A stretch of DNA of 17,821 nucleotides from Paenibacillaceae bacterium UBA6304 (GTDB lineage Bacteria; Bacillota; Bacilli; Paenibacillales; Paenibacillaceae): positions 1 through 17,821 of the forward strand of contig DJTQ01000318.1 of assembly GCA_002439285.1 (NCBI GenBank). The letters run 5' to 3'. Shown in pieces: positions 243-15,149 of this stretch. The notes under the pieces were generated by a model. It was not told the DNA's origin. It searched no databases and worked only from the letters and a program-made list of their open reading frames with translations. Each line of letters starts with the position of its first letter. The first letter of the stretch is position 1. The position numbers were made by a program, and so were the translations under genes.

Positions 243-267
243 TTAAAAAAGCCTGAATTCATCAGGC
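243..267 (-). terminator. Rho-independent terminator of the catabolic locus
   Basis: On the minus strand a six-pair stem GCCTGA/TCAGGC with a five-base loop is followed directly by six T residues. It lies about 35 bases beyond the stop codon of the regulator gene and ends the long minus-strand locus. The rest of 108-302 shows no clear gene or consensus promoter. Confidence 0.75.
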
Positions 268-302: not shown

Positions 303-1655
303 TTATCGAATGAGTCCATTCAAAAATTGAATTCGGTATTTTTGCCTAGGGCGACCACGGGAAGCTCCCTTTTCCTCGCCAATAATGTCAACGAGCCCGG
401 CATCCATCCAGTTCAGCAAGAACCGGTGCGCACTTCGGGTAGTCACTCCAAGAACAGAAGCTAAATCCTGAGCATAATAGTCAAGTTTGCCAAAACGTGT
501 GATATGAGCGATCAGCTTGCTTAAGTAGATTGAAGTTAAACCGGCAGATTCCGCCCTTTTGACCAGAACGGAATCGACCAGAGAAAGATCCAGTTCCATC
601 GGCTCCGTCATTTCGAGCGGCCCGATGACGCTTTCGTCTTCCCGCAAAATAAAGCAATTGTTGCCTCCCCCATCCTGGGCCAACCGCAGAGCTTGTCTTG
701 CATGCTCCCCGGCTTCTCCCGCCGAATAGCCGAACCCCACACCGATACTGAGTAGCAGGCCGAAGGACTTTTGGGCTTTTTTGGCCAAAGGAATCCGCTT
801 GTAACCTCCGGTCTCACGCTCGAAGATGCCACGAGTCGTTACAAACAAATACTCATTGCCGGCTACTTGTGTGAGATGCCCGTCCAGATACTCGGCAAAA
901 TTCAGAACCACATGATGTATTCCGAGCCGCAGCTGCCGAACTTCCTGTTCAGAACCGAGGGATTCTGTAAGTTTGGAGAAATTATCGACATGGATAATTC
1001 CCATGACGATTTGAGCTTCTTTATTCCTCCTCCATTCCGTAGCTAGCAGCGCACGTTCAAGGGTCACAATAATGTCCTGTTCCGTAGGTGCGATCCATTC
1101 GCTGGGGACACCCTCGGCGTTCAATTGATCCGTCACAATTTTTGATGAGGTTAAGGCGCAGGATGAACGGTTTAGTTGAAATTGTTCCCGATGGAAGCTC
1201 AGCAGTTCTTGTTCCGTAGGAGTTACATTATTCTCATATACGGATATCTTCATTTCCGGACTGCCGAGCTCATCCAAGACGGTTTTGATCATGGTTAAAG
1301 TTAATGAATCGACAGATATAGACGTTACTGGGTGATTCCTCTTCAGGCAAAAAAGGCTGCGATATAATCCTGATGCAGTTAAAGGGATAAACAGTGCAGG
1401 GATCTCAAACCGATAATTTCCCTTCACGAGCTGATACGAATGATGTTCGGCAAAAAGTAGTACTTCCGCCTCCATAGCTGCGGCACTTGCCAGCTTGCCG
1501 GCTTCGGATATCTGTTTATAACATTTAATGATCGGATCGAAGGAGGGAAATCCCTTAAGACAGTTTAATATTTTCTGCATCAGAACTTCAGGGCCGATAA
1601 TCGCAATTCTTATTCCTGACATTTCAGAGGTCTCAGTCTGCTGTTCCATCCACAT
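303..1655 (-). CDS. Transcriptional regulator: PrpR-like N-domain, degenerate GGDEF-like domain, winged helix
   Basis: This is a 450-residue cytoplasmic regulator and the last gene of the locus. Residues about 14-205 look like a two-lobed alpha/beta sensor of the type seen at the N-terminus of PrpR-like regulators; it starts IRIAIIGPE and closes with a TEQDI segment. Residues about 214-340 resemble a GGDEF/nucleotide-cyclase fold, but the signature loop reads AGNEY (265-269) instead of GGDEF, so diguanylate cyclase activity is unlikely. Residues about 372-446 form a helix-turn-helix plus a wing rich in Arg and Gly (RGRPRQKY). The ATG at 1655 is supported by GGAGG nine bases upstream. The gap to the preceding aldolase gene is 61 bases with no terminator, so it is probably co-transcribed and regulates the locus, perhaps sensing a pathway intermediate. 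The domain calls come from sequence pattern, not a search. Confidence 0.75.
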   Translation of the reverse strand: MWMEQQTETSEMSGIRIAIIGPEVLMQKILNCLKGFPSFDPIIKCYKQISEAGKLASAAAMEAEVLLFAEHHSYQLVKGNYRFEIPALFIPLTASGLYRSLFCLKRNHPVTSISVDSLTLTMIKTVLDELGSPEMKISVYENNVTPTEQELLSFHREQFQLNRSSCALTSSKIVTDQLNAEGVPSEWIAPTEQDIIVTLERALLATEWRRNKEAQIVMGIIHVDNFSKLTESLGSEQEVRQLRLGIHHVVLNFAEYLDGHLTQVAGNEYLFVTTRGIFERETGGYKRIPLAKKAQKSFGLLLSIGVGFGYSAGEAGEHARQALRLAQDGGGNNCFILREDESVIGPLEMTEPMELDLSLVDSVLVKRAESAGLTSIYLSKLIAHITRFGKLDYYAQDLASVLGVTTRSAHRFLLNWMDAGLVDIIGEEKGASRGRPRQKYRIQFLNGLIR

Positions 1656-1672
1656 GATGATACGCCTCCGGC

Positions 1673-1696
1673 AAAGATTTTTCGAAAATGATCTTT
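1673..1696. repeat. Inverted repeat just upstream of the regulator RBS
   Basis: AAAGAT and ATCTTT flank an inner palindrome TTTTCGAAAA, with a two-base bulge (TG). It lies immediately upstream of the GGAGG of the regulator gene and has no trailing T-run, so it is not a terminator. It could be an operator for autoregulation or an mRNA hairpin close to the ribosome binding site. Confidence 0.4.
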
Positions 1697-1716
1697 ACTG
1701 TTAACTATATCACAGT

Positions 1717-2784
1717 TTAACTTTGGAGCCAGCGATTAAGATTAGCCGCTACAAACTGATCATCATTCAGGTGAGGGTAAGCTCTGTAGACGCGGTCAAT
1801 TTCTTCCTGCTGCCCTGGCGACAACTCCTCATCAACATTAAGGCAATAGCGCCCTTCCAATAATCCTTGATGCCGCAGCACCTCATGAATACCGGGAATG
1901 CACCCGTGAAAGGAATGTGCAGGGTCAAAGAAAGCGGCGTTGCTATCCGTAATCTCCGCTCCCAGGGACAACCATTTGCTGTCGATGGCAGGAGACTTTC
2001 TCACATTCTTAATACTGTCCAGCAGATCGACCGCCTTCTTAGTCCAGACAGCCCAGTGTCCAAGTAATCCTCCAACGATTTGTTTCTCGACGATTTCTCC
2101 ATCAACGGGATAACGATAAGTTGTCAGCAAATCCGCAACAATGTTATCATCGTTCCCCGTATAGAGCGCGATATCATCACGGCGGCTGGATTCCATAACC
2201 GCACGGATGACATCCCAGGATTGATACCGGTTAAAAGGCGCCAGCTTAATGGCTATAACTCCTTCAATCTCGGCGAATGCACGCCAGAACTCATAGCTCA
2301 GTCTTCTTCCCCCCACTGAAGGCTGAAGGTAAAAGCCAAACACAGGAATGATCTCCACGACCTTCCTAGTTCTCTCCAGCAGTTCCTCCTCGCTCCAGTC
2401 CTGAAGTGCGCCCATGCTGAGCAGGCCGGCTTCATAACCTAGACGGGCCGCCAGCTTCGCTTCATGAATAGCTTGTTCCGTCGGACCGCAAATGCCGGCC
2501 ACCTTTAAGAATGGGCGACCCAGTCCCGCCCGCTGAACTTCTTCCGCTGCCAGCCTTAACACCGGTTCCAAGAGATCAACGCCGGGATTCCGGATTTCAA
2601 ACTGCGTGGAATGAACGGCTACGGCAATCCCGCCGGCACCTGCATCTATATAGTATCGGGTAAGTGCCCTTTGCCTCCGTTCATCAAGTCTCCGCGAGGA
2701 ATCAAGGGCCAGCGGATGCGCCGGAATCGCCAGCCCGTCATGCAACGCCGCATACAGCGCCGGTGACAGTCTTGAATCCTTCAT
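1717..2784 (-). CDS. DapA/NanA-family (class I, Schiff-base) aldolase or dehydratase
   Basis: This is a 355-residue TIM-barrel protein of the dihydrodipicolinate synthase / N-acetylneuraminate lyase family. These enzymes form a Schiff base with a 2-keto acid and carry out aldol cleavage, condensation or dehydration. The predicted Schiff-base lysine is K180 in GVIAIKLAPF, the tyrosine is Y152 in GFYLQPSVGG, and TGND lies at 209-212. In a sugar-acid locus it would suit cleavage of a 2-keto-3-deoxy acid to pyruvate and an aldehyde; that role is inferred. It is longer than the usual roughly 300 residues, with an extra C-terminal helical region. The longest frame starts at 2829, but ATG 2784 is preceded by GGGAGGG and shares one base with the TGA of the upstream SDR gene (TGATG), which indicates translational coupling. 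Confidence 0.8.
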   Translation of the reverse strand: MKDSRLSPALYAALHDGLAIPAHPLALDSSRRLDERRQRALTRYYIDAGAGGIAVAVHSTQFEIRNPGVDLLEPVLRLAAEEVQRAGLGRPFLKVAGICGPTEQAIHEAKLAARLGYEAGLLSMGALQDWSEEELLERTRKVVEIIPVFGFYLQPSVGGRRLSYEFWRAFAEIEGVIAIKLAPFNRYQSWDVIRAVMESSRRDDIALYTGNDDNIVADLLTTYRYPVDGEIVEKQIVGGLLGHWAVWTKKAVDLLDSIKNVRKSPAIDSKWLSLGAEITDSNAAFFDPAHSFHGCIPGIHEVLRHQGLLEGRYCLNVDEELSPGQQEEIDRVYRAYPHLNDDQFVAANLNRWLQS

Positions 2785-3803
2785 CAATATTTTCCCTCCC
2801 GCTCCTGATAATGCGTTTCCTTCTTCCAATCCTCCCGATCATGAAGCACCCAGTGTCCTACCCAATCAATCATCTCATTCAGTGTGACTTTGGGATAACC
2901 GAAGGTCTGCATTGCTATGGCCGAATTGCTCAGCAAAACTGTGGTGGCCTCTTCACCGACAAGGTTAGGATCTACGCCGAAGATTTCGCCAAAACGGCCC
3001 GCAGCCCAACGTAGCGACATTGTTTCCGGCCCCGTTACATTCATGAACTTCGGCGGGCAACTGCAATTATTCAGGGCGCGAAGCGCAATTTCATTCGCAT
3101 CTCCCTGCCAAATCACGTTGGCATGTCCTATGGTGATATCGATCGGCTTTCCTTCCTTTACCGCTTTGGCCACTTCTTGCAGGATGCCATATCGCAGATC
3201 AATAGCATAGTTAAGCCTATAAATGAACATGGGAATCTGATACTTATGCGAAAAATGTTCAAATACCCTTTCTCGGCCCAGGCAGGATTGTCCATATTCC
3301 CCATTCCCGGCAGGAGAGCACTGTTCGGTGGCTCCGCCAAGCGTCAGCGGTGTCAGAGGATATACATTACCTGTTGAGAAAACAACAATCCGCGAATTCT
3401 TGAACTTATCGGCCACTCTTCCAGGCAAATAAGCATTCATAGCCCAAGTAAGATGTTCATTGCCCGTTGTGCCAAACTTATAGCCGGCCATAAAAATAAT
3501 GTTCTTCACGTCGGGTAGCGCTTGCAACTCGTTATCGTTCAAAATATCAGCAGCGATCGTCTCTACCCCGCTCTTCTCAAGCTCATTTCTCAATCCTTCC
3601 GAAGAGAAACGTGCTACACCAATTACTCTTTTCTTGAGGCCTGCCTGCTTTATCGCGTTAACAGCCAGTCTTGCCATGCTGGGACCCATCTTTCCTCCCA
3701 CGCCCAATAGCATAATATCTCCATCCACTGCCGCCAAATCGCTGAGCAGTTCAGCGGAAGGCTCAGCCAGCTTGTTTTCAAGTTCTTGAACGTCTCTGAA
3801 CAC
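2784..3803 (-). CDS. NAD(P)-dependent epimerase/dehydratase-like extended SDR, atypical active site
   Basis: This is a 339-residue Rossmann protein. Its nucleotide-binding loop is GVGGKMG (34-40), a variant of the GxxGxxG of extended short-chain dehydrogenases. The family serine/threonine is present (FSTGNVY, S143/T144) and so is the tyrosine Y170, but the usual YxxxK reads YGQSC, so the catalytic lysine is replaced by C174. It may therefore bind NAD(P) with altered chemistry, or use a different lysine or arginine (R177 and R179 follow). The frame is open from 3881, but that start would overlap the preceding gene by 50 bases. A GTG at 3803 sits eight bases after GGAGGGG and gives a 28-base gap, so it is chosen. 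Its role is presumably oxidation/reduction or epimerization of a sugar intermediate; the substrate is unknown. Confidence 0.78.
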   Translation of the reverse strand: MFRDVQELENKLAEPSAELLSDLAAVDGDIMLLGVGGKMGPSMARLAVNAIKQAGLKKRVIGVARFSSEGLRNELEKSGVETIAADILNDNELQALPDVKNIIFMAGYKFGTTGNEHLTWAMNAYLPGRVADKFKNSRIVVFSTGNVYPLTPLTLGGATEQCSPAGNGEYGQSCLGRERVFEHFSHKYQIPMFIYRLNYAIDLRYGILQEVAKAVKEGKPIDITIGHANVIWQGDANEIALRALNNCSCPPKFMNVTGPETMSLRWAAGRFGEIFGVDPNLVGEEATTVLLSNSAIAMQTFGYPKVTLNEMIDWVGHWVLHDREDWKKETHYQEREGKY

Positions 3804-3831
3804 CTTAGCATCCCCTCCAATATCATTACTT

Positions 3832-4722
3832 TTATAAATAAATAGTTTTTCCGGTTTTCTTGCTTTCATTGGCCGCTTCAATAAACCTGATGACTTGCAG
3901 GGTTACGTCCATAGGAACAGCAGGGACACCGGTTTGAAATAAGCTCATGACTTGCTCCAGCAAGCTGGCATAGAAGGGTTTGTCCGCGGAATTAACGGTA
4001 ATAAATGCGGAATTCTGTTCCCCGTGAACGCTCGCCACAAACGGGAGCTCTCCAGAGCGGCTGCCTTTCAACATACCGCTTCTTCCATCCTTCCAGACCC
4101 CTGAGATAATCTCCAAATCACCGGATGAGGTAGCACGGACGCTGCGGCAATCCGGGCCCATCAAGGTAAACATCATTTCCACCAGATGAATGCCATACCA
4201 GAAATACCCCTTCTGCGTCGGTTCCATATACATCGGTCCAAAGCATTCTACGTTTGTAATTCGTTCATTGTTGGTATTAAGATATTGGGTTATGGCCTCC
4301 GCATAACGAAGTGCCGAAGTGCTCATAACAGGAACTGCAGCTTCTTGTGCGAGCTGTGCAATGACTCTCGCTTCCTCCAGGCTGTTCGCCAGCGGTTTAT
4401 CGATGAAGACCGGCTTCCCAAAGGGGACGATCTTTTCAAAAAGCTCACGATGCACGTATCCGTCGGCAGACAACAATAAAATAGCGTCACATTCCTCCGC
4501 AACCTCTTCCGGCCTTTCGGCCAGCCGGACGCCAAATCGTTGCTTTAGATCCTCTGCATAACCGGTAACTCTCGAAATACTAAGCTCGAAATTCGCCGAT
4601 CCTCCCGGAAATGCGGTGATCACCTGGCCGCCCTCGACATGATATGGATGCGCTTTATCATTCAGAAGCTCTGTAAAGGCAACCGAATGAGAGGTATCTG
4701 TGCCAATGATGCCGATCTTCAT
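3832..4722 (-). CDS. Gfo/Idh/MocA-family oxidoreductase (second copy, divergent)
   Basis: This 296-residue protein has an N-terminal NAD(P)-binding Rossmann fold (MKIGIIGTDTSHS) and a C-terminal Gfo/Idh/MocA alpha/beta domain. The family EKP motif appears as IDKP (K109), and a histidine corresponding to the catalytic one is present in YGIHLVEMM (H179). It is shorter and clearly diverged from the other Gfo/Idh gene in the locus, so it is not a recent duplicate. Typical reactions are NAD(P)-dependent oxidation of a sugar or cyclitol hydroxyl; some relatives have other roles. Start choice: ATG 4722 gives the family-typical N-terminus and has GGAG five bases upstream. ATG 4734, after AAGGGG, is equally possible and would add MGEG; the frame opens with GTG at 4743. 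Confidence 0.8.
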   Translation of the reverse strand: MKIGIIGTDTSHSVAFTELLNDKAHPYHVEGGQVITAFPGGSANFELSISRVTGYAEDLKQRFGVRLAERPEEVAEECDAILLLSADGYVHRELFEKIVPFGKPVFIDKPLANSLEEARVIAQLAQEAAVPVMSTSALRYAEAITQYLNTNNERITNVECFGPMYMEPTQKGYFWYGIHLVEMMFTLMGPDCRSVRATSSGDLEIISGVWKDGRSGMLKGSRSGELPFVASVHGEQNSAFITVNSADKPFYASLLEQVMSLFQTGVPAVPMDVTLQVIRFIEAANESKKTGKTIYL

Positions 4723-4754
4723 TCCTTCTCCCATAAGAGCCACCCCTTAATAAA

Positions 4755-4784
4755 CTATGAATTTAGATACTATGAATCTATGAA
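4755..4784. repeat. Three short CTATGAA direct repeats
   Basis: CTATGAA occurs at 4755-4761, 4770-4776 and 4778-4784, all in the same orientation, in the 74-base gap between the MDR gene and the second Gfo/Idh gene. The spacing is uneven (15 and 8 bases). It could be a processing or binding site, or simply AT-rich chance repetition. Confidence 0.25.
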
Positions 4785-4796
4785 GGGCAACACAAA

Positions 4797-5810
4797 TCAA
4801 TCGTAACGCAACAAAACTCCTAGTGATTCACCAATGTTCTTATTCATGGCGAGATAAGCATTAGGTGCTTCATGAATCGAATACTCTTGTGTTATCAGCG
4901 AATTCACTTGAAGAATACCCTCTTCAATTTGCCGGACAAATTCAGCCATATTCCGACCTTCTGTCCAACGAATATACGATTTGGGATAATCGATATTCCG
5001 ATCTTCATATTGTTCGTCATATCGACCGGGGCCTGCTGCGCGGGCAATTAAGAAATCCGCTTCCTTCTGAAAAAACAACTCGCGCGGGAACTCGATAGGC
5101 ACATTGCCGACAAGCACGAATTTGCCGCGAAAGGCCAACTTTTCCATACTTGTAGTGATTATTTTTGAGCTGGATGAATGAGCCACCAGTGAAATGCTGT
5201 CAAATCCGTGTCCCTCAGTAAACAGGTCGATCTGTTGGTCGAGCTTTGGATCATTGGCTAGATAAGCTTCGATTCCGGAGGCTTTGACGGCAGCCACACG
5301 TGCAGGGTCCATGTCCGTTCCGAACACTCGGTAGTTGGCCTGCTTGCATAGTTGCGCCATCAGCTGGCCCAGTAATCCTAAGCCGACGATCCACACCGTT
5401 TCTCCAAACTGCAACCCCATTCTTCTTACACTATGAATTGCCACGGAGCTCAATCCGACAAAGGCTGCTTCCCGCAGCTTTTCCTCTGAAGACAGTTTCA
5501 CACAAAGTTGTCTCGGTACGGATAATTGTTCAGCATGATAAACGTAGGGGCCGCCGTAACAAGCAACAAGATCACCGGGTTTTAGATCAGTTATCTTCGC
5601 GCCAACCGAAACCACCTGGCCCGAGGCGCTATAACCAAGCTTGAATCCGTCAGGAACATCTATGTTATGGATCAGGTTTAATTCCGTACCGGGACTGATA
5701 GAAGAATACTTAACTTTAACAAGCACCCGATAGGGATGGTCTTCCGTGATCTGAGGCGCTTCCGCCTCCTCAAGTATGGCCGCCTTCTGTTTCACGACGA
5801 TCTGCTTCAT
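4797..5810 (-). CDS. Medium-chain dehydrogenase/reductase lacking zinc ligands
   Basis: This 337-residue protein has the two-domain medium-chain dehydrogenase layout: a GroES-like N-domain (about 1-125) and a Rossmann domain with VGLGLLG (142-148), followed by an acidic residue (D166) that favours NAD over NADP. The usual catalytic-zinc residues are absent: the GICGTD-type cysteine is replaced by SSISPGTE (36-43), and the GHE segment reads GYS (59-61). No four-cysteine structural zinc loop is present. The SxSxGTE pattern occurs in MDR relatives of bacteriochlorophyllide dehydrogenase and in Gfo/Idh-linked oxidoreductases. The ATG at 5810 has AAAGGGG upstream. It lies 37 bases after the isomerase gene and is probably co-transcribed; it presumably oxidizes or reduces a sugar-derived substrate. 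Confidence 0.82.
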   Translation of the reverse strand: MKQIVVKQKAAILEEAEAPQITEDHPYRVLVKVKYSSISPGTELNLIHNIDVPDGFKLGYSASGQVVSVGAKITDLKPGDLVACYGGPYVYHAEQLSVPRQLCVKLSSEEKLREAAFVGLSSVAIHSVRRMGLQFGETVWIVGLGLLGQLMAQLCKQANYRVFGTDMDPARVAAVKASGIEAYLANDPKLDQQIDLFTEGHGFDSISLVAHSSSSKIITTSMEKLAFRGKFVLVGNVPIEFPRELFFQKEADFLIARAAGPGRYDEQYEDRNIDYPKSYIRWTEGRNMAEFVRQIEEGILQVNSLITQEYSIHEAPNAYLAMNKNIGESLGVLLRYD

Positions 5811-5847
5811 ATCCGTTATCCCCTTTACTATGAGATGAAATTGAATG

Positions 5848-6729
5848 CTATCGGTAGTTCTGAATAAATGTCACGGCGTTGCGAATGTCACGTTCCGGGT
5901 CGTCGCCAACTTCTCGTTCAATGGTTAAATAGCCATCGTAACCTATATCCTGCAGTGCCTTGAAATAAGCGTTAAAATCCACTTTACCTTCCCCCAGCGG
6001 TAACTCTTCAAATAATTTGCCTTCACGCAGCAGTTGCGCGATCGCCTCATGCTTCATCGGCTCATAGCCTAAAGCGCCGTAAAGCACCCGTGGATCAAAG
6101 GGTTGATAGCGAATCCCGTCCTTTACATGGGTATGCACAATATAATCCTTAAGCAGATGTACGCCTTGCGCCGGATCATCGCCTGTCACCATGACCATAT
6201 TGGCGGGATCAAAATTAACCGAGACGCCCTTTGTACTAAAAGTATCCAAGAAACTCTTCAAATGCGCAGCCGGTTCAGGCCCTGTCTCCACAGCAAAATA
6301 GGCTCCTAAGCTAGTGGCATACTGCCCCAGTTCCTCACAGGCATCACGCATCGCTTCGTAGACCGAATTTTCTTCCTGTGGAACGATCCCTATATGTGTG
6401 GTAACGACATGGGTACCCAATTCAACCGCCAGATCCAATATTCGCTTGGATTTTTCGATTTTCTTCGCATTGGCTTGCCGATCCTGAAAGCCGTGACCCT
6501 CCAAATCGCCACATAGGGCTGAAATCTCCAAGCCTAGAGATGCGATATAATCCCGGAGATCCTTTCTGGCCCCGGTATTCAGGTTGTCCGGATCCATCTC
6601 GCCTTTAACGGCATAAATCTGTACCCCATCGGCACCGGCTTCTTTGGCTTTTCGCAAACCATCGCGTACCGGAAGACCAAAACTGTCAACAATCACGCCG
6701 ATTTTGTTATTCAAGGCATGCCTAGTCAT
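5848..6729 (-). CDS. Sugar phosphate isomerase/epimerase-like TIM barrel (AP endonuclease 2 fold)
   Basis: This 293-residue protein belongs to the xylose-isomerase-like / AP endonuclease 2 superfamily of metal-dependent TIM barrels. The expected metal-site residues are visible: E148 in FAVETGPEP, D174 in VNFDPANM, H201 in VHTHVKDG and E271 in LTIEREVG. The superfamily covers ketose 3-epimerases, inosose dehydratases and 3-keto-glycoside (including C-glycoside) cleaving enzymes. Its position 14 bases after a Gfo/Idh dehydrogenase gene suggests it acts on that enzyme's keto product, by epimerization, isomerization or elimination. The ATG at 6729 has AAGGGGGG eight bases upstream. The length is normal for the family and the active site looks intact. 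Confidence 0.85.
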   Translation of the reverse strand: MTRHALNNKIGVIVDSFGLPVRDGLRKAKEAGADGVQIYAVKGEMDPDNLNTGARKDLRDYIASLGLEISALCGDLEGHGFQDRQANAKKIEKSKRILDLAVELGTHVVTTHIGIVPQEENSVYEAMRDACEELGQYATSLGAYFAVETGPEPAAHLKSFLDTFSTKGVSVNFDPANMVMVTGDDPAQGVHLLKDYIVHTHVKDGIRYQPFDPRVLYGALGYEPMKHEAIAQLLREGKLFEELPLGEGKVDFNAYFKALQDIGYDGYLTIEREVGDDPERDIRNAVTFIQNYR

Positions 6730-6743
6730 TTGCAGAGCCCCCC

Positions 6744-7808
6744 TTAATTGAAATGTACTTCCTGTTGAAGCCTTGCCGACTCATAAATTGCACTAAGGAT
6801 CTTCATCATCTCCAGTCCGTCTTCCACTGGACTGATGGTGTTCGAGCGGCCGGTACAGCTATCGATAAAATGATTGATTTCATTCTGAAATCCCGAGATG
6901 AAATCGAAGGTGGGATAGTCGATCTGCGGGGTTGCATTCAGAATCGTATCGAATTTCTCCGAGATGATTTGCAGCCCCGGTTCAAGTTCAGCCCCGCCCT
7001 TGTCTCCGTATAATTTTACCGACATCTCATCTTGCTTCGCATGTAGCGTAAAGCTGACATCAACCATCAATGAGGCTCCATTCTCAAACCGGATAATGGC
7101 ATTGGCCAGGTCTTCAACATCATTGCGCTGTGCATCATAATCGGCCGCTTTATAAAAAGAAAGATTGTGTATATTTGAGCGATTTCCCAAGCAGGAGTAG
7201 GTATTTCCGCTTACACTTTTCACTTTGGGCTTGCCCATCAAGTACCAGCAAACATCGATAATATGGACGCCCAGATCAATGAGCGGACCGCCTCCTGAAG
7301 ATTCTTTTTCGGCAAACCATCCGCCCGGATTCCCTAGCCGCCGCAAACAAGTGGCTTTCGCGTAATAAATGTCACCCAGATCCCCGGCATCAATGAATTT
7401 CTTCAATACCTCCGTATTCTGGGAATACCTGCGCACAAATCCGACCTGCAGCACCTTGCCGTTGCTAGCGCTTACAGCCTCTGCAATTTCTTCCGCCTCG
7501 GATATGGTCTTACTTAATGGTTTTTCGACCAAGACATGCTTGCCTGCCTTTAGCGCTGCGATGCTGATTGGCGCATGCGTATTATTCCATGTGCAGATAC
7601 TTACAGCCTCAATCGAGTCGTCCGCCAGAAGCTCCCGGTAATCGGTATAAACATCGGGAATGCCGTACTTTAACGCAGCTTCCTGAGCTCGTTCCCGGTT
7701 GATATCGCAAACCGCCTGGAGATCTACCTCCGGATGATTGGCATAGGCCTGTAAATGGACACCTGAGATGGATCCTGCTCCGATCACGGCCACTTTAAGC
7801 TTGTTCAT
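6744..7808 (-). CDS. Gfo/Idh/MocA-family dehydrogenase (canonical copy)
   Basis: This is a 354-residue NAD(P)-dependent sugar or cyclitol dehydrogenase. The N-terminal Rossmann domain begins MNKLKVAVIGAGSISG. The EKP motif (VEKPLSK, K96) and the GGGPLIDLGVHIID segment with D178 and H182 give the usual catalytic set, so the enzyme should be active. The frame is open from 7931, but ATG 7808 follows AGGAGG by nine bases and gives the family-typical start. It overlaps the 3' end of the toroid-protein gene by 14 bases, which implies coupled translation. By analogy with the family it could oxidize a ring hydroxyl of a sugar or inositol, or a free or glycosidic C3-OH; the substrate is not determined. 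Confidence 0.87.
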   Translation of the reverse strand: MNKLKVAVIGAGSISGVHLQAYANHPEVDLQAVCDINRERAQEAALKYGIPDVYTDYRELLADDSIEAVSICTWNNTHAPISIAALKAGKHVLVEKPLSKTISEAEEIAEAVSASNGKVLQVGFVRRYSQNTEVLKKFIDAGDLGDIYYAKATCLRRLGNPGGWFAEKESSGGGPLIDLGVHIIDVCWYLMGKPKVKSVSGNTYSCLGNRSNIHNLSFYKAADYDAQRNDVEDLANAIIRFENGASLMVDVSFTLHAKQDEMSVKLYGDKGGAELEPGLQIISEKFDTILNATPQIDYPTFDFISGFQNEINHFIDSCTGRSNTISPVEDGLEMMKILSAIYESARLQQEVHFN

Positions 7809-8901
7809 GCGCAATTGCCTCCTCTTCCCCCAACAACAATTCTTCAAGAATAAGATTTGCCACGATACCGGCAAAACCAGCCGCCTTGCGGAAGGTCGTT
7901 GTAACCGGGGTCCGGTCTTGTTCGTTTTCATTATTTTGAATGTTAGGTTTGAACAGAGAGCTCCTTCTCTCTGCCAGATCGCCAGCTACTTCTGCGAATT
8001 TGTTTAGTCCAATCCTTCGCACATCTTCCTTTGATGAACTTCGCAACAATGCCCAATAAAGCTCCCAGCCATTACTCCAATCCCGCGTCCACCAAGGTGC
8101 TTCCGTGGCTTCCGATGGGGGCTGCCGCATAGCTTCCACCAAAGTATCCACCGCTTGGGATGACACTTCGAGCCAACGCTCGTGTAGATCACTACTCAGC
8201 AGAGGAAGGGCTGTATGGCTAAGGGCGATAATTGTGGCTTGATAGAGTACACTGTTACCCATGTGTACAGAACCGTCCCAATGTTCAATGTAGGGCCACC
8301 ATCCCTTTTCATTTTTGCCAAAGCGGTCTGCCAGATGGGTGAAGATTTGCTGAACTTTCTTTAAATATTCCAAATTTCCTGAAAGCTCGTAAGCTCTGCC
8401 GAACGTATGGGCAGCGTACATATCCCCATTTAGCACATCAAAATCTGATCCGGGCCGCTTTAGAATCACCGCCGGATTTTGTACTGCCACCTGTGTCAAC
8501 AAGTATTCTGCGGATTGCAACAAACTTTCTTTAGCCGATAGGCTACCCGTGGCCTTGTGCACAAGGTAAAGACTATTTGCAACCGCGCCCACCTCTGCGA
8601 TATCCACCACCTCAGGTTCGCCTTTTTTTGCATAAAAAGGCTGACTGAAGGCACCGCCCGGCAATTGCCGCCGTCTCACTTCCAGCACGAGTTGACCGGC
8701 GATTTGCAATCCGTCACCGCCAGGGTTTATTTTCCCATCGAGCGCATACAACGAGGCTGCCAGCCCCGTCGTGCAGCAGCTTGCCCGGTCACCGAGCTCC
8801 TCATCAAATATATACAGTAATCCCGTTTCCGGGTCTTTATTAAGCAAGCTGTCAAAGTACGGCTTCATCCCGCTGATGATTTGTGGGGCAAGCTCTCTCA
8901 T
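7795..8901 (-). CDS. Alpha/alpha-toroid (six-hairpin-like) protein of unknown function
   Basis: This 368-residue, helix-rich soluble protein has no signal peptide. I do not recognise a defined family. Repeated helical pairs, aromatic- and acid-rich loops (GWWPYIEHWDGSVHMGNS, APWWTRDWSNGWELYW) and a conserved-looking CCTTGLAASLYAL near the N-terminus resemble the alpha/alpha toroid of six-hairpin glycosidases, GH88-like hydrolases or uronate epimerases. It lies between the permeases and the dehydrogenases, so intracellular hydrolysis or epimerization of the imported compound is plausible but inferred. The frame is open to 9045, inside the permease gene. ATG 8901 is preceded by AGGAG at nine bases and is chosen over ATG 8937 and 8910, which lack a suitably placed ribosome binding site. 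Confidence 0.65.
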   Translation of the reverse strand: MRELAPQIISGMKPYFDSLLNKDPETGLLYIFDEELGDRASCCTTGLAASLYALDGKINPGGDGLQIAGQLVLEVRRRQLPGGAFSQPFYAKKGEPEVVDIAEVGAVANSLYLVHKATGSLSAKESLLQSAEYLLTQVAVQNPAVILKRPGSDFDVLNGDMYAAHTFGRAYELSGNLEYLKKVQQIFTHLADRFGKNEKGWWPYIEHWDGSVHMGNSVLYQATIIALSHTALPLLSSDLHERWLEVSSQAVDTLVEAMRQPPSEATEAPWWTRDWSNGWELYWALLRSSSKEDVRRIGLNKFAEVAGDLAERRSSLFKPNIQNNENEQDRTPVTTTFRKAAGFAGIVANLILEELLLGEEEAIAHEQA

Positions 8902-8933
8902 GTCACTCATCTCCTGTAACTGTTCATTGCGGT

Positions 8934-9818
8934 TCATTTGGAGCCTGTCATCGTAATTCCTTCGATAAACACTTTTTGAACGAAGAAATACAATATTATG
9001 ATCGGGAGTGCAAACAATGCCGCGGCTGCCATCAACATTCCCCATTCAATGTTGTATTCGCCTATAAATGCCTTTAAGCCGACCGACAGTGTCCATTTCT
9101 CCGGATCGTTCAAGTAAATAAGCGGAAGCTGATAGTCCTTCCAGGAGTTCAAGAATACGAGCAATCCAACCGTAAATAATGCGGGACGCGATAAAGGCAA
9201 TATTATCTGCCAGTAGATCCGGAATTCCGAGGCTCCGTCGATTTTGGCGGATTCGGAAACTTCCTGCGGAATCCCCATAAAAAACTGCCGGAGCAAAAAG
9301 ATATAATAGGCCGCCCCAAAAAAGGCAGGGAGAATCAAAGGCCAGTAAGTGTTGACCATGTTCATTTTATTGAACAATACATAGAGGGGGATCATTGTAG
9401 CCTGGGAAGGCAGCATGATCGTTGCCATAATAATCATGAACAGAAAGTTTCTTCCTTTGAAAGGGATCCTGGCAAGCCCGTAAGCTGTCAAAGGTGCAGC
9501 GATTAGTTCCCCGGCCACGCATAGAAGAGACACGAACAAGGTGTTCATTGTGTATCTCATAAACGGGATGAAGTTAACCGCATTCGAGTAATTGGTCCAA
9601 TACAATTCTTTCGGCCACCATACAAAAGGTACGGCAAAAATATCATCGATCGATTTAACGGATGTTAGCAGCAAATAAGCAAAAGGCCCGAGAAAAAAGA
9701 TTCCGGCAAAACACAGGAGTAAATGCCTGGTCACAGAACCTGCTCTTTTTTTCATAGATGGTTTTTTCTTACTGGATTCCACCGAGAGGGATTCGGAAGC
9801 AAGGGAAAGGTTGGACAT
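8934..9818 (-). CDS. Carbohydrate ABC transporter permease, MalG type
   Basis: This 294-residue inner-membrane protein has about six transmembrane segments. The first is near residue 33 (RHLLLCFAGIFFLGPFAYLL), after a basic cytoplasmic N-terminus. The EAA loop that contacts the ATPase is at 188-211 (SESAKIDGASEFRIYWQI...), and the protein ends in a short basic tail (VFIEGITMTGSK) typical of MalG-like subunits. It pairs with the adjacent MalF-type subunit to import a carbohydrate. ATG 9818 overlaps the upstream TAA by one base (TAATG) and is preceded by a near-perfect GGAGGTGATA, indicating translational coupling. Confidence 0.93.
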   Translation of the reverse strand: MSNLSLASESLSVESSKKKPSMKKRAGSVTRHLLLCFAGIFFLGPFAYLLLTSVKSIDDIFAVPFVWWPKELYWTNYSNAVNFIPFMRYTMNTLFVSLLCVAGELIAAPLTAYGLARIPFKGRNFLFMIIMATIMLPSQATMIPLYVLFNKMNMVNTYWPLILPAFFGAAYYIFLLRQFFMGIPQEVSESAKIDGASEFRIYWQIILPLSRPALFTVGLLVFLNSWKDYQLPLIYLNDPEKWTLSVGLKAFIGEYNIEWGMLMAAAALFALPIIILYFFVQKVFIEGITMTGSK

Positions 9819-10747
9819 TACTTATCACCTCCATAGTAAACCCACTTCGCAGAAGTCTTGAAAATAATAAAAGCAAAAAACATGACCACCATGAAGAGCA
9901 TCCACGCCATGGCCGATGCATATCCCATATCCAGGAAAGAAAAGGCCTGCTGATATAAATAGATGGAATAAAACAACAGGGAATTTTCGGGCCCGCCGGT
10001 TGACTGTGTTGCTTCGGCAAAGACCATCCCTTCCGTGAAATATTGAAATGAAGCGATGAGCATCATAATCAACTGGAATAATGTCATGGGAGAAATAAAC
10101 GGGAACGTAACCGTCCAGAATTGTCTCCATTTGCTTGCGCCGTCAATCTCTGCGGCTTCGTAGAACATTTTCGGCACATCCTGAAGTGCGGCCAAATACA
10201 TGACTGTGATTGTGCCTGTACCCCAGAATCCCATTAGAACCAGGGAAGGCTTGGTCCAATCCGGGTCAATCAGCCAGTTAGGACCGGTAATCCCTATATA
10301 ACTAAGTCCCATGTTGATAAGCCCGTATTGAGAGTTCAACAACCACATCCACAGCAGAGAACCTGCAACAGCCGGAACTAATGTAGGCAAGAAATAAATC
10401 GTGCGGTAAATGCTCTGACCCTTCACCTTAGTATTTAGAAGCAAGGCCATGACTAAGGCATAAGCTAAATGCGGAACAACGCCAACGATCGTAATATATA
10501 AAGTGTTATACATGGATAAATAAAACTTTTCGTCCCGGAACAACTCCGTATAATTCCTCAATCCTAACCACTCAGGCGCTTTAAATAAATTATATTCAGT
10601 CAAGCTGTAATAAAATGAGGCCGCAACAGGGTACAACTGAAAAATTAAAAATCCTATAATCCAAGGGCTAGTAAATAAAAGTCCTGTGAGCAGTACTTTC
10701 CGTTCTCTCTTTCGAATGCCGACTGTATTACTGCTCTTTTCCGTCAT
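9818..10747 (-). CDS. Carbohydrate ABC transporter permease, MalF type
   Basis: This 309-residue permease has six predicted transmembrane segments, the first at about 19-40 (LLTGLLFTSPWIIGFLIFQL), and the EAA loop at 197-220 (EAAEIDGASKWRQFWTVTFP). The conserved WLGLRNYTELF segment after TM1 is typical of MalF/UgpA-type subunits of CUT1 transporters. The frame is open to 10801, but ATG 10747 has GAGGAGG seven bases upstream and gives a normal length. No ATPase gene is present in the locus; in Bacillota such importers usually share a distant MsmX/UgpC-type ATPase. Confidence 0.93.
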   Translation of the reverse strand: MTEKSSNTVGIRKRERKVLLTGLLFTSPWIIGFLIFQLYPVAASFYYSLTEYNLFKAPEWLGLRNYTELFRDEKFYLSMYNTLYITIVGVVPHLAYALVMALLLNTKVKGQSIYRTIYFLPTLVPAVAGSLLWMWLLNSQYGLINMGLSYIGITGPNWLIDPDWTKPSLVLMGFWGTGTITVMYLAALQDVPKMFYEAAEIDGASKWRQFWTVTFPFISPMTLFQLIMMLIASFQYFTEGMVFAEATQSTGGPENSLLFYSIYLYQQAFSFLDMGYASAMAWMLFMVVMFFAFIIFKTSAKWVYYGGDK

Positions 10748-10776
10748 TAAACCGCCTCCTCGATTTGCCGGGATAA

Positions 10777-10799
10777 GCGGTCCGAATCCACCGGACCGC
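10777..10799 (-). other. Intercistronic GC-rich stem-loop after the binding-protein gene
   Basis: This is a perfect eight-pair stem, GCGGTCCG/CGGACCGC, with a seven-base loop, located between the solute-binding protein stop and the first permease start. No T-run follows, so it is not a normal terminator. Similar hairpins after binding-protein genes are known to stabilize the upstream mRNA and give more binding protein than permease; that role here is inferred. Confidence 0.65.
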
Positions 10800-10803
10800 A
10801 ACT

Positions 10804-12126
10804 TCAGCTATGTTTGTCTACAAGCGGCTGAATTTTATCTGCTACGTTATCCATTGCCTCTTGAGGTGACAAGGAACCTTTAAGCGCCTTCTCTGTCTCT
10901 TCCGATAAGGATTGCAAATACTCGCTAATGTAAGGACTGTTCGGAAATCCATTCAGATTTTCACTCTTCGCTTTTTCATAAAACGTCCACATCGTCTTAT
11001 TCTCTTCACTTAACAACCGGTTATCATCCAGTGCCGTAATGATTGTCGGGATGACATGTCCATCCAATGAAAACTGAATCTGTGTATCCGTAGTCATTAG
11101 ATATTGTATGAATTCCCAGGCCTCCTCCGAATGTTTAGCTTTTGTCGGAATAAATACGGCACGCGGGCTGACCATACCGGAGCCTTTGAGCTCAGGATGA
11201 GCTTCCGGATATGGAAAATCAGCAACGCCGATAGGACCATCCTCCGTTCTTTCCTGCATGAAGTTATACTCCCAGCCGATATACATCGCCAATTGTCCGG
11301 TCAACAACGGATCTTGTGGCGTGCCGCGTTTGCCCATTCCCGATTTGAACTTATCGATTTGGCTTTGACCGAATTCTTCATAGAAGGAACGTTGGTAAGC
11401 GATCGCTTGTACGTTGGCCTCTGCGTTCGGAGTCACCTTGCCTGTGGCCTCGTCATACCAGGAGCCACCAAAGATCACCGGCCAGAACACATTATCAATC
11501 CATGGATAGTCTGGAATAAAACCGATTTGCGAAATATTTCCACTGTCATCCCTTTTCGTCAGTTGCTTGGCATAATCAAACAACTGCTCCAATGTTTCTG
11601 GAGGTGATGTTATTCCGGCTTCCTTAAAAGCCGCTTTATTGTACATCAGTGAACTGCCTATACTCATCGTAAATGGCATTGCGTAATATTTATCATTCAC
11701 TTTCATCCGATCCATGGCTGCCGGAATAATTGTGTTTATATCAAACTCATCTTTGGCTATATTGTCGGTTAAATCTAGGATAGCGCCTGCATCGGCCCAG
11801 GGTCCGACATTGTCCCAGTACGTGAGTACAACATCGGGCGCCGCACCGCCAGATATGGCGGTCAATTGCTTCGTCGGATCCTGATTTCCAAGAATTTTAA
11901 CCTTAATCCGATCCTGGCTCTGATTGAAGTTCTCGACGGTTTTCTTAATTGGATCGGCATCCGCATCGGTATAAGTATGCCAGAAGGAAATTTCCACTTT
12001 TCCGGCCGACTTCCCCGTTGCACCGTTATTAGTGCTGCTTTCATTCGAACTGCAACCCGCAAGAAGTGAGGCTGTGACTACGATAGAGGCAATCATTCCA
12101 AAAGCTTTGTTCTTGAATACTGACAA
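10804..12126 (-). CDS. Extracellular solute-binding lipoprotein, family 1 (sugar ABC importer)
   Basis: This 440-residue lipoprotein delivers the substrate to the adjacent permeases. The N-terminus MSVFKNKAFGMIASIV is a lipoprotein signal peptide ending in the lipobox LLAGC, with C25 as the acylated residue, followed by a Ser/Asn/Gly-rich linker. The mature part has the family-1 pattern ISFWHTYTDADADPIKK, and GGSWYDEATGKVTP and EEAWEFIQYLMT further on. Tryptophan and tyrosine residues are spread along the presumed cleft. The frame opens at 12162, but a TTG at 12126 lies six bases after AAGGGGGG, and the ATG at 12162 has no ribosome binding site in front of it, so TTG is chosen. The 195-base gap upstream contains a candidate internal promoter. 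Confidence 0.92.
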   Translation of the reverse strand: MSVFKNKAFGMIASIVVTASLLAGCSSNESSTNNGATGKSAGKVEISFWHTYTDADADPIKKTVENFNQSQDRIKVKILGNQDPTKQLTAISGGAAPDVVLTYWDNVGPWADAGAILDLTDNIAKDEFDINTIIPAAMDRMKVNDKYYAMPFTMSIGSSLMYNKAAFKEAGITSPPETLEQLFDYAKQLTKRDDSGNISQIGFIPDYPWIDNVFWPVIFGGSWYDEATGKVTPNAEANVQAIAYQRSFYEEFGQSQIDKFKSGMGKRGTPQDPLLTGQLAMYIGWEYNFMQERTEDGPIGVADFPYPEAHPELKGSGMVSPRAVFIPTKAKHSEEAWEFIQYLMTTDTQIQFSLDGHVIPTIITALDDNRLLSEENKTMWTFYEKAKSENLNGFPNSPYISEYLQSLSEETEKALKGSLSPQEAMDNVADKIQPLVDKHS

Positions 12127-12254
12127 ATTGGTTCCCCCCTTAATTAGAATCATAAAATTCAAATTAATCTCGAGACTTACCGGATATGAAGTCAGGCTCC
12201 GACCCGCTTAATAACCACCCCCTTAAAAGTAATCAAGGATTGAATAACGTTTTT

Positions 12255-12287
12255 ATTATAATTGATAGTGAAAATAACCTTTATTTT
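12255..12287 (-). promoter_or_regulatory. Candidate promoter -10 plus 17-base palindrome before the binding-protein gene
   Basis: On the minus strand a perfect TATAAT lies at 12260-12255. About 11 bases upstream, covering the -35 position, is the inverted repeat AAAATAA-N3-TTATTTT (12271-12287). No good -35 hexamer is seen at 16-18 bases, as in activator-dependent promoters. The palindrome could be a repressor or activator operator giving separate control of the transporter. AT-rich sequence makes chance occurrence possible. Confidence 0.4.
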
Positions 12288-12293
12288 ACGAGT

Positions 12294-12318
12294 AAACTGC
12301 GGATATTTCCTCCAGTTT
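12294..12318. other. Stem-loop at the 3' end of the enolase-superfamily gene
   Basis: AAACTG/CAGTTT flank an inner GGA/TCC pairing with a four-base loop, just beyond the stop codon at 12322. On the minus strand it has no T-run, so termination would be weak. It may define the 3' end of a separate short transcript or simply protect the mRNA. Confidence 0.35.
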
Positions 12319-12321
12319 TTG

Positions 12322-13461
12322 TTATGAAGGATCCCCATATTCTCCATAGCAGTAACGTTGCAACTTGTCCATTGAGATCTCGCATCCGATTCCGGGCCTG
12401 TCAGGTAAAAGTACCCTACCTTCCTTAATCTCGGGGCCATCGATGACTGGATCATCTTCCAAAAATAAAGGGCCGTTCAAATCGACCGGATCGGTAATTT
12501 GCAAGTAGTTAAACAAATGCGCACTTGCCGTCAAGCCGAGCCTTGACTCCGTCAGCCCTCCCCCAAGCAATCCGAGTCCCGCTTCTCTTGCTAGTTCTCC
12601 GCACAATCTGGCACCGGACAAGCCCCCCATCTTAGTGAGCTTGATTACAACCGTATCGCACGCTTCCGCCCGAATGGCCTGCAGCAGGTCAACGGCAGTC
12701 CATATGCTCTCGTCAAGCGCAACGGGAATAGAGGTTCTTCTTCTCAGCGCTGCATGTCCGGATAAATCGCCGGCTCGCAGTGGCTGCTCAAACACATCTA
12801 CACCGATTTGTTCCATCTGTTTGGCAAGCTTGACTGCCTGCTGCAGATTGTAGGCCTGATTGGCATCCACCCGCAAAAACAAATCGGGAGCCGAGCTCTT
12901 TACAGCGTGCAGAATTTCAATATCCTGCAGCGGATTGATTCCGAGTTTCACATCCAGACCCTTGTACCCGTGTGTATAGGCGTACAAGGCTTTTTGCTCC
13001 GCTTCCTCCGGGCTCGCCGTACTGATGAGATAGGAAAGTTGTGAAGTCTGCTGAAATCCGGAGAACCACAGATCGGCCAGCCGGTTGTCGTCGGCAACAC
13101 CGATCAAATCATGCAGCGCCATATCCACCGCAGCCTTCGCAATAGGTTGTCCGTTTCCAACTCCCCCTTTAATCTCCTTGTTCATTAACATATGAATGTG
13201 AGAAAGGTCTCTTACATTTTCGCCCAGCAAAACAGGCCTTATATAGCGTAGAAGCGTACTTGTTACAGACTCAAGAGTTTCATAGCTCCATCTATGGCTT
13301 GGACGGGCTTCACCCCATCCCTCCACACCGTTATCTGCAGTCACTTTCACATATACATGGGGGGCGCCACAATTTCTATTTCCTACCGAGCCGCTGGAGA
13401 TTGTAAAATCCTGCTTCATGGGGAGATTCAACGGGTATATCTCAATGTTAGAAATATTCAC
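12322..13461 (-). CDS. Enolase-superfamily enzyme, mandelate racemase/muconate lactonizing type
   Basis: This 379-residue enzyme has the capping domain (about 1-130) and modified TIM barrel of the superfamily, which abstracts a proton alpha to a carboxylate. Predicted Mg2+ ligands are D199 (RVDANQAY), E225 (FEQPL) and D250 (ALDES). A lysine on the opposite face is present in VIKLTKMGG (K274/K277). The strand-2 K-x-K motif reads D170-V-K172, so the first lysine is missing while K172 remains. The overall pattern is closest to the MLE/dipeptide-epimerase branch, but the locus suggests a sugar-acid dehydratase; both are possible. The GTG at 13461 is supported by GGAGG nine bases upstream; an ATG two bases upstream is out of frame and followed directly by a stop. 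It is the first gene of the locus. Confidence 0.87.
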   Translation of the reverse strand: MNISNIEIYPLNLPMKQDFTISSGSVGNRNCGAPHVYVKVTADNGVEGWGEARPSHRWSYETLESVTSTLLRYIRPVLLGENVRDLSHIHMLMNKEIKGGVGNGQPIAKAAVDMALHDLIGVADDNRLADLWFSGFQQTSQLSYLISTASPEEAEQKALYAYTHGYKGLDVKLGINPLQDIEILHAVKSSAPDLFLRVDANQAYNLQQAVKLAKQMEQIGVDVFEQPLRAGDLSGHAALRRRTSIPVALDESIWTAVDLLQAIRAEACDTVVIKLTKMGGLSGARLCGELAREAGLGLLGGGLTESRLGLTASAHLFNYLQITDPVDLNGPLFLEDDPVIDGPEIKEGRVLLPDRPGIGCEISMDKLQRYCYGEYGDPS

Positions 13462-13515: not shown

Positions 13516-13585
13516 GCGACAGACGGAAAAAATCTTTATTTTGTCGATTTAAAGACAATTTTTTCTCCATTTGGCGACAACGGAA
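13516..13585. promoter_or_regulatory. Repeated GCGACA / TTGTC elements, putative operator array
   Basis: Two direct repeats, GCGACAGACGGAA (13516-13528) and GCGACAACGGAA (13574-13585), are 58 bases apart. They flank an inverted repeat TTGTC-N8-GACAA (13541-13558). All share the core CGACA or its complement. They lie 55-125 bases upstream of the first gene of the catabolic locus, where a regulator such as the one encoded at 303-1655 would be expected to bind. Confidence 0.45.
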
Positions 13586-13710: not shown

Positions 13711-13760
13711 CATACTCCTTGTGGCACATGTGCATCTTAATCCTAGAGGAGGAATGTGAA

Positions 13761-15142: not shown

Positions 15143-15149
15143 CTTGATA

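What the first reader, a model, noticed from the sequence alone, without database searches (positions are those of the whole stretch)
303..13461. Twelve-gene catabolic locus for an unidentified carbohydrate, with no kinase and no ATPase
Four NAD(P)-type dehydrogenase-like proteins (two Gfo/Idh, one MDR, one SDR), an enolase-superfamily enzyme, a TIM-barrel isomerase, a DapA-type aldolase and a toroid protein accompany one CUT1 importer. The absence of a sugar kinase points to a non-phosphorylative route: oxidation to a sugar acid, dehydration to a 2-keto-3-deoxy acid, retro-aldol cleavage. The missing ATPase fits a shared MsmX-like ATPase. I know of no described pathway with exactly this set.
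Basis: partly seen in the sequence, partly recalled or inferred. Interest (0 to 1): 0.7.

Follow-up and report, generated by a model that had tools for sequence, protein, structure and literature searches.

The report
Variant 3-keto-glycoside breakdown operon
A soil-type bacterium carries a twelve-gene cluster that probably imports and dismantles an unidentified, likely amino-sugar-containing glycoside by oxidising it first, and comparison with relatives suggests it is one of two trimmed-down versions of a larger ancestral gene set.

Summary
In detail: twelve intact genes on one strand (13461-303), tightly packed, with no kinase and no transporter ATPase.

(1) The core ENO-SBP-two permeases-TOR-MDR recurs in other Paenibacillaceae. 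In half of 12 related loci it carries NanE (ManNAc-6-P epimerase) and an M55 peptidase where the window has GFO1-TIM and SDR-DHD, and in 5 of 12 an intact ROK kinase. So absence of a kinase here is local; this genome also has a NanE-RpiR-ROK cluster elsewhere.

(2) One relative (L135) keeps relics of GFO1, TIM, SDR and ROK at matching positions, so window and relative look like opposite reductions of a larger locus.

(3) A conserved element 95 bp before ENO occurs once per genome in 9 of 12 genomes searched: one dedicated regulon is likely.

(4) GFO1-TIM-MDR resembles E. coli YcjS-YcjR-YcjQ (34/23/25% identity), enzymes working through 3-keto-glycosides.

(5) ENO has an MLE-type active site, so it is a doubtful sugar-acid dehydratase. 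The SDR lacks its catalytic lysine (12 of 12 sequences). TOR is a toroid without a family model.

(6) One MalK/MsmX-type ATPase elsewhere fits a shared ATPase.

Best reading: new variant of 3-keto-glycoside catabolism; substrate unknown, probably N-acetylhexosamine-bearing.

The parts
13530..13559 (-). Conserved operator-like element (TTYGTCTTTAAAT-N8-TRAAGATTT), 95 bp from its GTC to the ENO start
   Evidence: One site per genome in 9 of 12 genomes at up to 2 mismatches, none for the reversed control; GTCTTTAAAT in 9 of 10 ENO upstream regions; shorter core in the window 1 match at up to 3 mismatches against 0.10 expected
12322..13461 (-). ENO: enolase-superfamily protein, MLE subgroup, DxK in place of KxK
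   Evidence: Pfam MR_MLE_N/C; alignment to 2p88 and 1jpm; DxK in the window and 9 orthologues, 10 of 10 aligned
12162..12321 (-). ENO-SBP intergenic region with a possible second, related conserved element (GGAGRAAATATCC...)
   Evidence: By eye in the intergenic regions printed; not tested statistically
10804..12126 (-). SBP: CUT1-type extracellular solute-binding lipoprotein
   Evidence: SBP_bac_8/SBP_bac_1; best PDB chain 4r9f 'MBP1' E 7.6e-33
9818..10747 (-). PERM1: CUT1 permease
   Evidence: BPD_transp_1
8934..9818 (-). PERM2: CUT1 permease
   Evidence: BPD_transp_1
7795..8937 (-). TOR: (alpha/alpha)6 toroid protein, no Pfam family
   Evidence: AlphaFold2 pLDDT 93.8; AGE-like, GH88-like and GH76-like folds; found in 14 of 394 family genomes at E 1e-5
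6744..7808 (-). GFO1: Gfo/Idh/MocA sugar dehydrogenase, DgpA/YcjS-like
   Evidence: Best PDB DgpA 7xr9, 196.8 bits; YcjS 34%; EKPL and GGGPLIDLGVH motifs
5848..6729 (-). TIM: xylose-isomerase-like TIM barrel, distant YcjR relative
   Evidence: AP_endonuc_2 E 1.4e-34; YcjR 23%; best PDB is 3tva (E 1e-22, deposited without a function), 3-keto-D-glucoside 4-epimerase 6wn6 follows at E 3e-5
4797..5810 (-). MDR: medium-chain dehydrogenase with GTE motif as in YcjQ
   Evidence: ADH_N/ADH_zinc_N; YcjQ 25%; GTE aligned in 7 of 7
3832..4743 (-). GFO2: short, divergent Gfo/Idh protein
   Evidence: GFO_IDH_MocA E 1.6e-10; WYGIH in place of the GGGxxxDxxxH signature in 6 of 6
2784..3803 (-). SDR: atypical extended SDR lacking the YxxxK lysine, paired with DHD
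   Evidence: Motif and 12-sequence alignment; in the same locus as DHD in 80 of 80 named loci
1717..2784 (-). DHD: DapA-superfamily class I aldolase/lyase
   Evidence: DHDPS Pfam; invariant lysine in AxKxAxF; 158 of 394 family genomes at E 1e-10
303..1655 (-). REG: putative regulator, GGDEF-like middle and helix-turn-helix-like C-terminus
   Evidence: GGDEF_GdpP 41.2 bits; relatives in 60 of 80 SDR-DHD loci and 8 of 12 TOR loci
251..267 (-). Terminator-like hairpin closing the operon
   Evidence: where such hairpins are as frequent as in shuffles; its place after REG is the only support

Best explanation
A dedicated uptake and catabolic operon of the 3-keto-glycoside type. SBP-PERM1-PERM2, energised by an ATPase shared from elsewhere, import a glycoside, probably beta-linked and N-acetylhexosamine-bearing. 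GFO1 oxidises a sugar ring, most likely at C3, with NAD(P). TIM isomerises or beta-eliminates the 3-keto sugar. MDR (and perhaps GFO2) returns or removes hydride at the partner position, as YcjS-YcjR-YcjQ do. TOR acts on the glycosidic bond or on the keto/glycal product. ENO epimerises a carboxylate-bearing part. SDR-DHD takes an acid product and splits it by retro-aldol to pyruvate or a similar 2-oxo acid. The kinase branch (ROK, NanE) that travels with this core in relatives was lost from the locus and could be supplied in trans. Shown here: gene content, conserved core, shared cis-element, fold and motif assignments, relics in a relative. Inferred: every reaction, their order, the loss, and the substrate.
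For: GFO1's best solved relative is DgpA, and it aligns with YcjS with the motifs kept; that DgpA is a C-glycoside dehydrogenase is recalled. GFO1-TIM-MDR adjacency mirrors ycjQRS, annotated D-guloside 3-dehydrogenase, 3-dehydro-D-guloside 4-epimerase, D-glucoside 3-dehydrogenase. TIM of the window and two relatives keeps Glu, Asp, His, Glu at positions aligned with YcjR (that these bind the metal is recalled). Printed pathways of oxidation-elimination-hydration-reduction use the same families (passages). Amino-sugar link: NanE in 6 of 12 and intact ROK in 5 of 12 TOR loci; NanE-NagB-ROK and a GH20-like gene (NagB and GH20 named by eye) next to GFO1-MDR-TOR in L155; NanE-ROK in one run with GFO1, MDR, SDR, DHD and GFO2 on a Mesobacillus plasmid. 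One regulon. Shared ATPase.
Against: Identities to YcjQRS are only 23-34%, TIM's best solved relative has no known function, and GFO1's best NCBIfam model is inositol 2-dehydrogenase, below its cut-off (166.6 of 355 bits). The core also exists without GFO1-TIM: 0 of 12 related loci have them intact, so the 3-keto step is not essential to the locus everywhere. No glycosidase, phosphorylase, kinase or hexosaminidase is in the window. Six of 12 related loci (L139, L140, L141, L142, L143, L146) have neither NanE nor ROK in the stretch fetched. Only 10 of 80 SDR-DHD loci have any of NanE/ROK/NagA/NagB within about 10 kb. No substrate is shown.
Confidence: 0.45

Rival explanations
1. One reading: a free sugar is imported, oxidised to a sugar acid, dehydrated by ENO to a 2-keto-3-deoxy acid, and split by DHD, with no phosphorylation.
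For: DHD has the Schiff-base lysine of DapA-type enzymes. Elsewhere the SDR-DHD pair lies beside other candidate makers of 2-keto-3-deoxy acids: an IlvD/Edd-like gene (named by eye) in 2 of 80 loci, serine-dehydratase-like SdaAA in 57 of 80 with an M20 amidohydrolase in 36 of those, a heparinase-like lyase in 3 of 80 and in this genome's second copy. No kinase in the window.
Against: ENO has MLE-subgroup catalytic lysines and its two nearest solved relatives are 2p88 (deposited as a family protein; an N-succinyl amino acid racemase by recall) and the L-Ala-D/L-Glu epimerase 1jpm. ENO and SBP are conserved in loci with a kinase and without the aldolase. A route from a free sugar leaves TOR, TIM and GFO1 unexplained.
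Confidence: 0.2
2. Unsaturated-uronide route: TOR is a GH88/GH105-like hydrolase of lyase-made oligosaccharides, SDR and DHD process the 4-deoxy-5-keto-uronate to pyruvate.
Confidence: 0.15
3. Nonulosonic-acid (sialic-acid-like) route: DHD is a lyase giving an N-acetylmannosamine-like sugar plus pyruvate, ROK and NanE are the usual NanK and NanE steps.
For: DHD's only PDB match is an N-acetylneuraminate lyase (E 7e-5); NanE and ROK belong to the same locus in relatives and NanE lies near SDR-DHD in 3 of 80 loci.
Against: Most SDR-DHD loci have no NanE/ROK/NagA/NagB within about 10 kb (70 of 80); in 11 of 12 TOR loci no DHD lies in the stretch fetched; the window locus itself has neither NanE nor ROK.
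Confidence: 0.1
4. A mosaic: two neighbouring operons (TOR core; SDR-DHD set with GFO1, TIM, GFO2) joined by chance and serving different substrates.
For: GFO1 and/or TIM relatives at 68-75% occur with SDR-DHD but without TOR or ENO in L036, L043 and L084.
Against: Packing with overlapping genes; relics of TIM, GFO1 and SDR at the same places in L135; SDR-DHD beside the TOR locus in L144/L147; all 14 TOR genomes hold DHD.
Confidence: 0.1

Closest known systems
E. coli ycjMNOPQRSTUV (YcjQRS D-guloside to D-glucoside conversion)
   Same: CUT1 importer plus Gfo, TIM and MDR genes side by side; same families, GTE motif of MDR, Gfo and TIM motifs
   Different: 23-34% identity; no phosphorylases YcjT/YcjM or mutase; extra ENO, TOR, GFO2, SDR, DHD; other regulator
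DgpABC puerarin and GlycDH/OGE glycoside degradation operons
   Same: Gfo oxidation followed by a sugar-isomerase-like enzyme; GFO1 best PDB hit is DgpA (passages of PMC10628242)
   Different: The Agrobacterium operon has two sugar-isomerase-like genes and a second oxidoreductase; Dgp's second lyase subunit is recalled; substrate here unknown
Levoglucosan pathway LgdA-LgdB1-LgdB2-LgdC
   Same: Oxidation, elimination, hydration, reduction by dehydrogenase and sugar-isomerase-like proteins with an ABC transporter (passages of PMC7676230)
   Different: GFO1 scores 152 against the 650-bit levoglucosan dehydrogenase cut-off; only one TIM gene; toroid, enolase and aldolase extra
NanE-NanK amino-sugar catabolism
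   Same: Half of the related loci carry NanE, 5 of 12 a ROK kinase
   Different: Neither is in the window
N-acylglucosamine 2-epimerase / cellobiose 2-epimerase superfamily
   Different: About 10% identity; window TOR has no Pfam match up to E 10 except one unrelated model

Membership tests
YcjQRS-type 3-keto-glycoside conversion | Gfo dehydrogenase with EKP and GGGxxxDxxxH motifs | tested here: met
   GFO1 EKPL 95, GGGPLIDLGVH 172; aligned with YcjS
YcjQRS-type 3-keto-glycoside conversion | TIM-barrel enzyme with Glu/Asp/His/Glu metal site | tested here: met
   Residues of the window and two relatives (L036, L084) aligned with YcjR; their metal role is recalled
YcjQRS-type 3-keto-glycoside conversion | MDR partner with GTE motif next to the other two genes | tested here: met
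YcjQRS-type 3-keto-glycoside conversion | Orthology at clear identity | tested here: inconclusive
   34, 23 and 25% identity
YcjQRS-type 3-keto-glycoside conversion | Glycoside phosphorylases YcjM/YcjT in the operon | tested here: not met
   No such gene in the window
YcjQRS-type 3-keto-glycoside conversion | Activity on 3-keto-glycosides | not testable with these tools
   Needs enzymes
Enolase superfamily, MLE subgroup | Lysines at strands 2 and 6, three acidic metal ligands | tested here: met
   DVKLG 170, RVDANQ 197, FEQPL 224, LDES 249, IKLTKMGG 273, aligned to 1jpm and 2p88; roles recalled
Enolase superfamily, dipeptide epimerase | KxK motif and family cut-off | tested here: not met
   DxK in 10 of 10 sequences aligned; 157.8 against 500 bits
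Sugar-acid dehydratases of the enolase superfamily | Family cut-off of arabinonate, talarate, mannonate or gluconate dehydratase models | tested here: not met
   All far below cut-offs
DapA superfamily class I aldolases | Schiff-base lysine and Ser/Thr-Thr carboxylate site | tested here: met
   Lysine and [ST]T in 12 of 12 sequences; role assignment by motif, recalled
DapA superfamily class I aldolases | Catalytic tyrosine | tested here: met
   GFY in the window; replaced by Ala or Ser in 2 of the 12 sequences aligned, so not a fixed trait of the family
Extended SDR dehydrogenases/epimerases | YxxxK catalytic pair | tested here: not met
   YGQSC in the window; no lysine at that position in 12 of 12 sequences, window included
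AGE/cellobiose 2-epimerase (TOR) | Fold | tested here: met
AGE/cellobiose 2-epimerase (TOR) | Sequence family and two catalytic histidines | tested here: inconclusive
   PF07221 reached by 10 of 49 members, best E 9e-4; one invariant and one nearly invariant His (H201, H177), no residue mapping made
GH88/GH105 unsaturated uronyl hydrolases (TOR) | Sequence family and catalytic aspartates | tested here: inconclusive
   PF07470 in 8 of 49, best E 0.0077; D112 and D167 invariant, superposition not made
CUT1 importer with shared MsmX-like ATPase | No ATPase in locus, a MalK-type ATPase elsewhere in the genome | tested here: met
   one found, genome 86% complete; that it serves this importer is not tested

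The most novel reading that the evidence does not exclude
The locus and its relatives are the catabolic system for beta-linked N-acetylmannosamine-bearing wall polymers of Gram-positive bacteria (such as S-layer-anchoring secondary cell wall polymer), released outside by the DUF4855 beta-glycosidase-like partner, imported by this CUT1 system, and dismantled inside through 3-keto amino-sugar chemistry by GFO1-TIM-MDR and the toroid TOR, giving a kinase-free branch (window) and a ROK/NanE branch (relatives) of one pathway. I recall no described route for breaking down this polymer; one search on its terms listed papers on its synthesis and anchoring role (listing only).
Probability: 0.1. Interest if true: 0.72.

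Novelty: new variant of a known kind. Interest (0 to 1): 0.45.

Why it matters
It gives a concrete, testable gene set for an unknown carbohydrate, with three enzymes of no assigned function: the toroid TOR, the lysine-less SDR that is paired with a DapA-type enzyme in Bacillota, Planctomycetota, Pseudomonadota, Actinomycetota and Bacteroidota, and a DxK enolase-superfamily protein. The relics in a relative suggest that presence or absence of a kinase in one locus is a poor guide to whether a pathway is phosphorylative, which is a common inference in genome annotation.

Tried and rejected

Left out before counts: G367 (weak partial TOR match) was not fetched, so TOR loci are 12 of 13 non-own genomes; L141, L142 and L146 were not in the upstream regions; the operator search covered 12 genomes, of which G355, G034 and G217 gave no match. 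L142 holds TOR and a DUF4855 gene but no other core gene, and L146 is decayed. Several loci end at contig ends, so their absences are weak. The named SDR-DHD loci are the 80 best of at least 567, so they lean to close relatives.
Full report
What is there. The window holds twelve intact genes on the - strand between 13461 and 303, packed with gaps of 61 bases or less except ENO-SBP (195), with a terminator-like hairpin at 267-251. Pfam places them as one enolase-superfamily protein (ENO), a CUT1 binding protein and two permeases, a protein without a family (TOR), two Gfo/Idh proteins (GFO1, GFO2), a xylose-isomerase-like TIM barrel, a medium-chain dehydrogenase (MDR), an SDR that reaches no Pfam model, a DapA-type protein (DHD) and a regulator-like protein (REG). 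None of the 16 window proteins scanned matches a kinase or ATPase family.

The core is conserved, but in different company. TOR occurs in 14 of 394 genomes of the family. I fetched the loci of 12 of the 13 other genomes. ENO and MDR are present in 11 of 12, SBP and permeases in 10 of 12, GFO2, NanE and an M55 peptidase in 6 of 12, an intact ROK kinase in 5 of 12, an RpiR regulator in 9 of 12, REG in 8 of 12, and a secreted-type DUF4855 protein in 10 of 12; GFO1-TIM are intact in 0 of 12 and SDR-DHD lies beside the locus in 1 of 12 (L144/L147) (fragments in L146 are counted). Six of 12 have neither NanE nor ROK in the stretch fetched. Where NanE and M55 occur, NanE stands where the window has GFO1-TIM, and M55 where it has SDR-DHD. 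Outside the family, an Alicyclobacillus-like genome (L155) has NanE-NagB-ROK-Gfo-TIM-GFO1-MDR-GH20-like-TOR in a row (NagB, GH20 and TIM named by eye, GFO1, MDR, NanE, ROK and TOR also by tblastn; the genus is inferred from a contig length), and a Mesobacillus plasmid has TIM-GFO1-SDR-DHD-GFO2-CUT1-MDR-GFO1-Gfo-NanE-ROK across its record origin, with a few other genes between.

Relics. L135, whose TOR is 70% identical, keeps broken pieces at the matching places: 42 codons of TIM with stops, directly after TOR; a nucleotide match that runs from the tail of window GFO1 into TIM (72% over 158 bases), so that L135's TOR gene seems to end in GFO1's last codons; pieces of SDR between M55 and REG (78% over 83 and 87% over 38 bases); and 19 codons of ROK upstream of ENO. 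So both gene sets seem once to have sat in that locus. The window shows no relic of NanE, ROK, M55 or RpiR (none below E 0.3). I read window and L135 as opposite reductions of a fuller ancestor; gain in one lineage is not excluded.

One regulon. Upstream of ENO lies a conserved, partly palindromic element, TTYGTCTTTAAAT-N8-TRAAGATTT, with GTC 85-96 bases from the start codon in 9 of 10 upstream regions examined. In 12 genomes searched it occurs once in each of 9 and not in the other 3 at up to 2 mismatches, with no match for the reversed pattern. A related element seems to precede SBP (by eye). This speaks against separate regulation, though expression was not measured, and which regulator binds is unknown.

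The SDR-DHD pair. DHD is in 158 of 394 family genomes at E 1e-10, and SDR lies in the same locus in 80 of 80 named loci, which are the best 80 of at least 567. Within about 10 kb, SdaAA-like genes occur in 57 of 80, M20 in 37, REG in 60, GFO2 in 30, a heparinase-like lyase in 3, IlvD-like in 2, and any of NanE/ROK/NagA/NagB in 10. These neighbours suggest, without proof, that DHD receives a 2-keto-3-deoxy-type acid made in different ways. All 14 TOR genomes have DHD against 144 of the other 380 (Fisher p 2e-6, uncorrected for kinship).

ATPase and kinase. One OB_MalK-type ATPase was found in the genome, 372 aa, on a 3.7-kb contig with a regulator-like gene and no permease, which fits a shared ATPase. 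The genome has NanE-RpiR-ROK on another contig, SdaAB-SdaAA on a third, and a second SDR-DHD with heparinase-like lyase and CUT1 genes on a fourth. It is 86% complete in 452 contigs, so absences are weak.

Substrate. Leads only: amino-sugar genes in relatives; SBP's best solved relative 4r9f 'MBP1' (that it binds beta-manno-oligosaccharides is recalled); the DUF4855 partner with a CBM32-like domain and a glycosidase-like barrel, whose close subfamily shares 7 contig lengths with the TOR family, 73 TOR rows against the first 36 DUF4855 rows (equal length taken as same contig, not checked one by one). I commit to a 3-keto-glycoside route for a probably N-acetylhexosamine-bearing glycoside at 0.45.

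Verdict. Real and coherent; a new variant of a known kind of pathway, with three unassigned enzymes.

Noticed in passing
L135: 8975-9160 and 4990-5450: Relics of TIM/GFO1 tail and of SDR at the places where the window has intact genes, plus a ROK relic upstream of ENO.
   Followed up: yes
L061:7614-13888 and, in part, 57 of 80 named loci: Recurrent Paenibacillaceae module REG-SDR-DHD-SdaAB-SdaAA-M20-GFO2; an N-acyl-amino-acid/sugar-acid route can be imagined (deacylation, ammonia elimination, retro-aldol).
   Followed up: partly
L145:4124-5830 and 9 other TOR loci: DUF4855 protein: CBM32-like domain plus barrel with invariant glutamates (E410, E491, E493), likely a glycosidase of unassigned family.
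   Followed up: partly
L114:8073-11059, L117:8020-11062: In Sulfitobacter and Tistrella the SDR-DHD pair sits with a GNAT gene and a differently annotated ABC transporter, so its substrate range may be wider than sugars from CUT1.
   Followed up: no
window 303-1655: REG's C-terminus matches the end of an antiphage-protein model weakly (25 of 370 bits); probably a shared helix-turn-helix rather than membership.
   Followed up: no
window 13719-17718: Upstream flank: amino acid permease, asparagine synthetase AsnA, LysE exporter and an L-asparaginase II-like gene (matching positions 135-321 of the 322-position model), an unrelated asparagine-type cluster.
   Followed up: no
L119:4184-8407: The genome's second SDR-DHD copy lies beside a heparinase II/III-like lyase and CUT1 genes at a contig end.
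   Followed up: partly
L146:8900-14000: A decayed copy of the TOR locus with ENO, TOR, MDR, RpiR and REG in fragments; described only.
   Followed up: no
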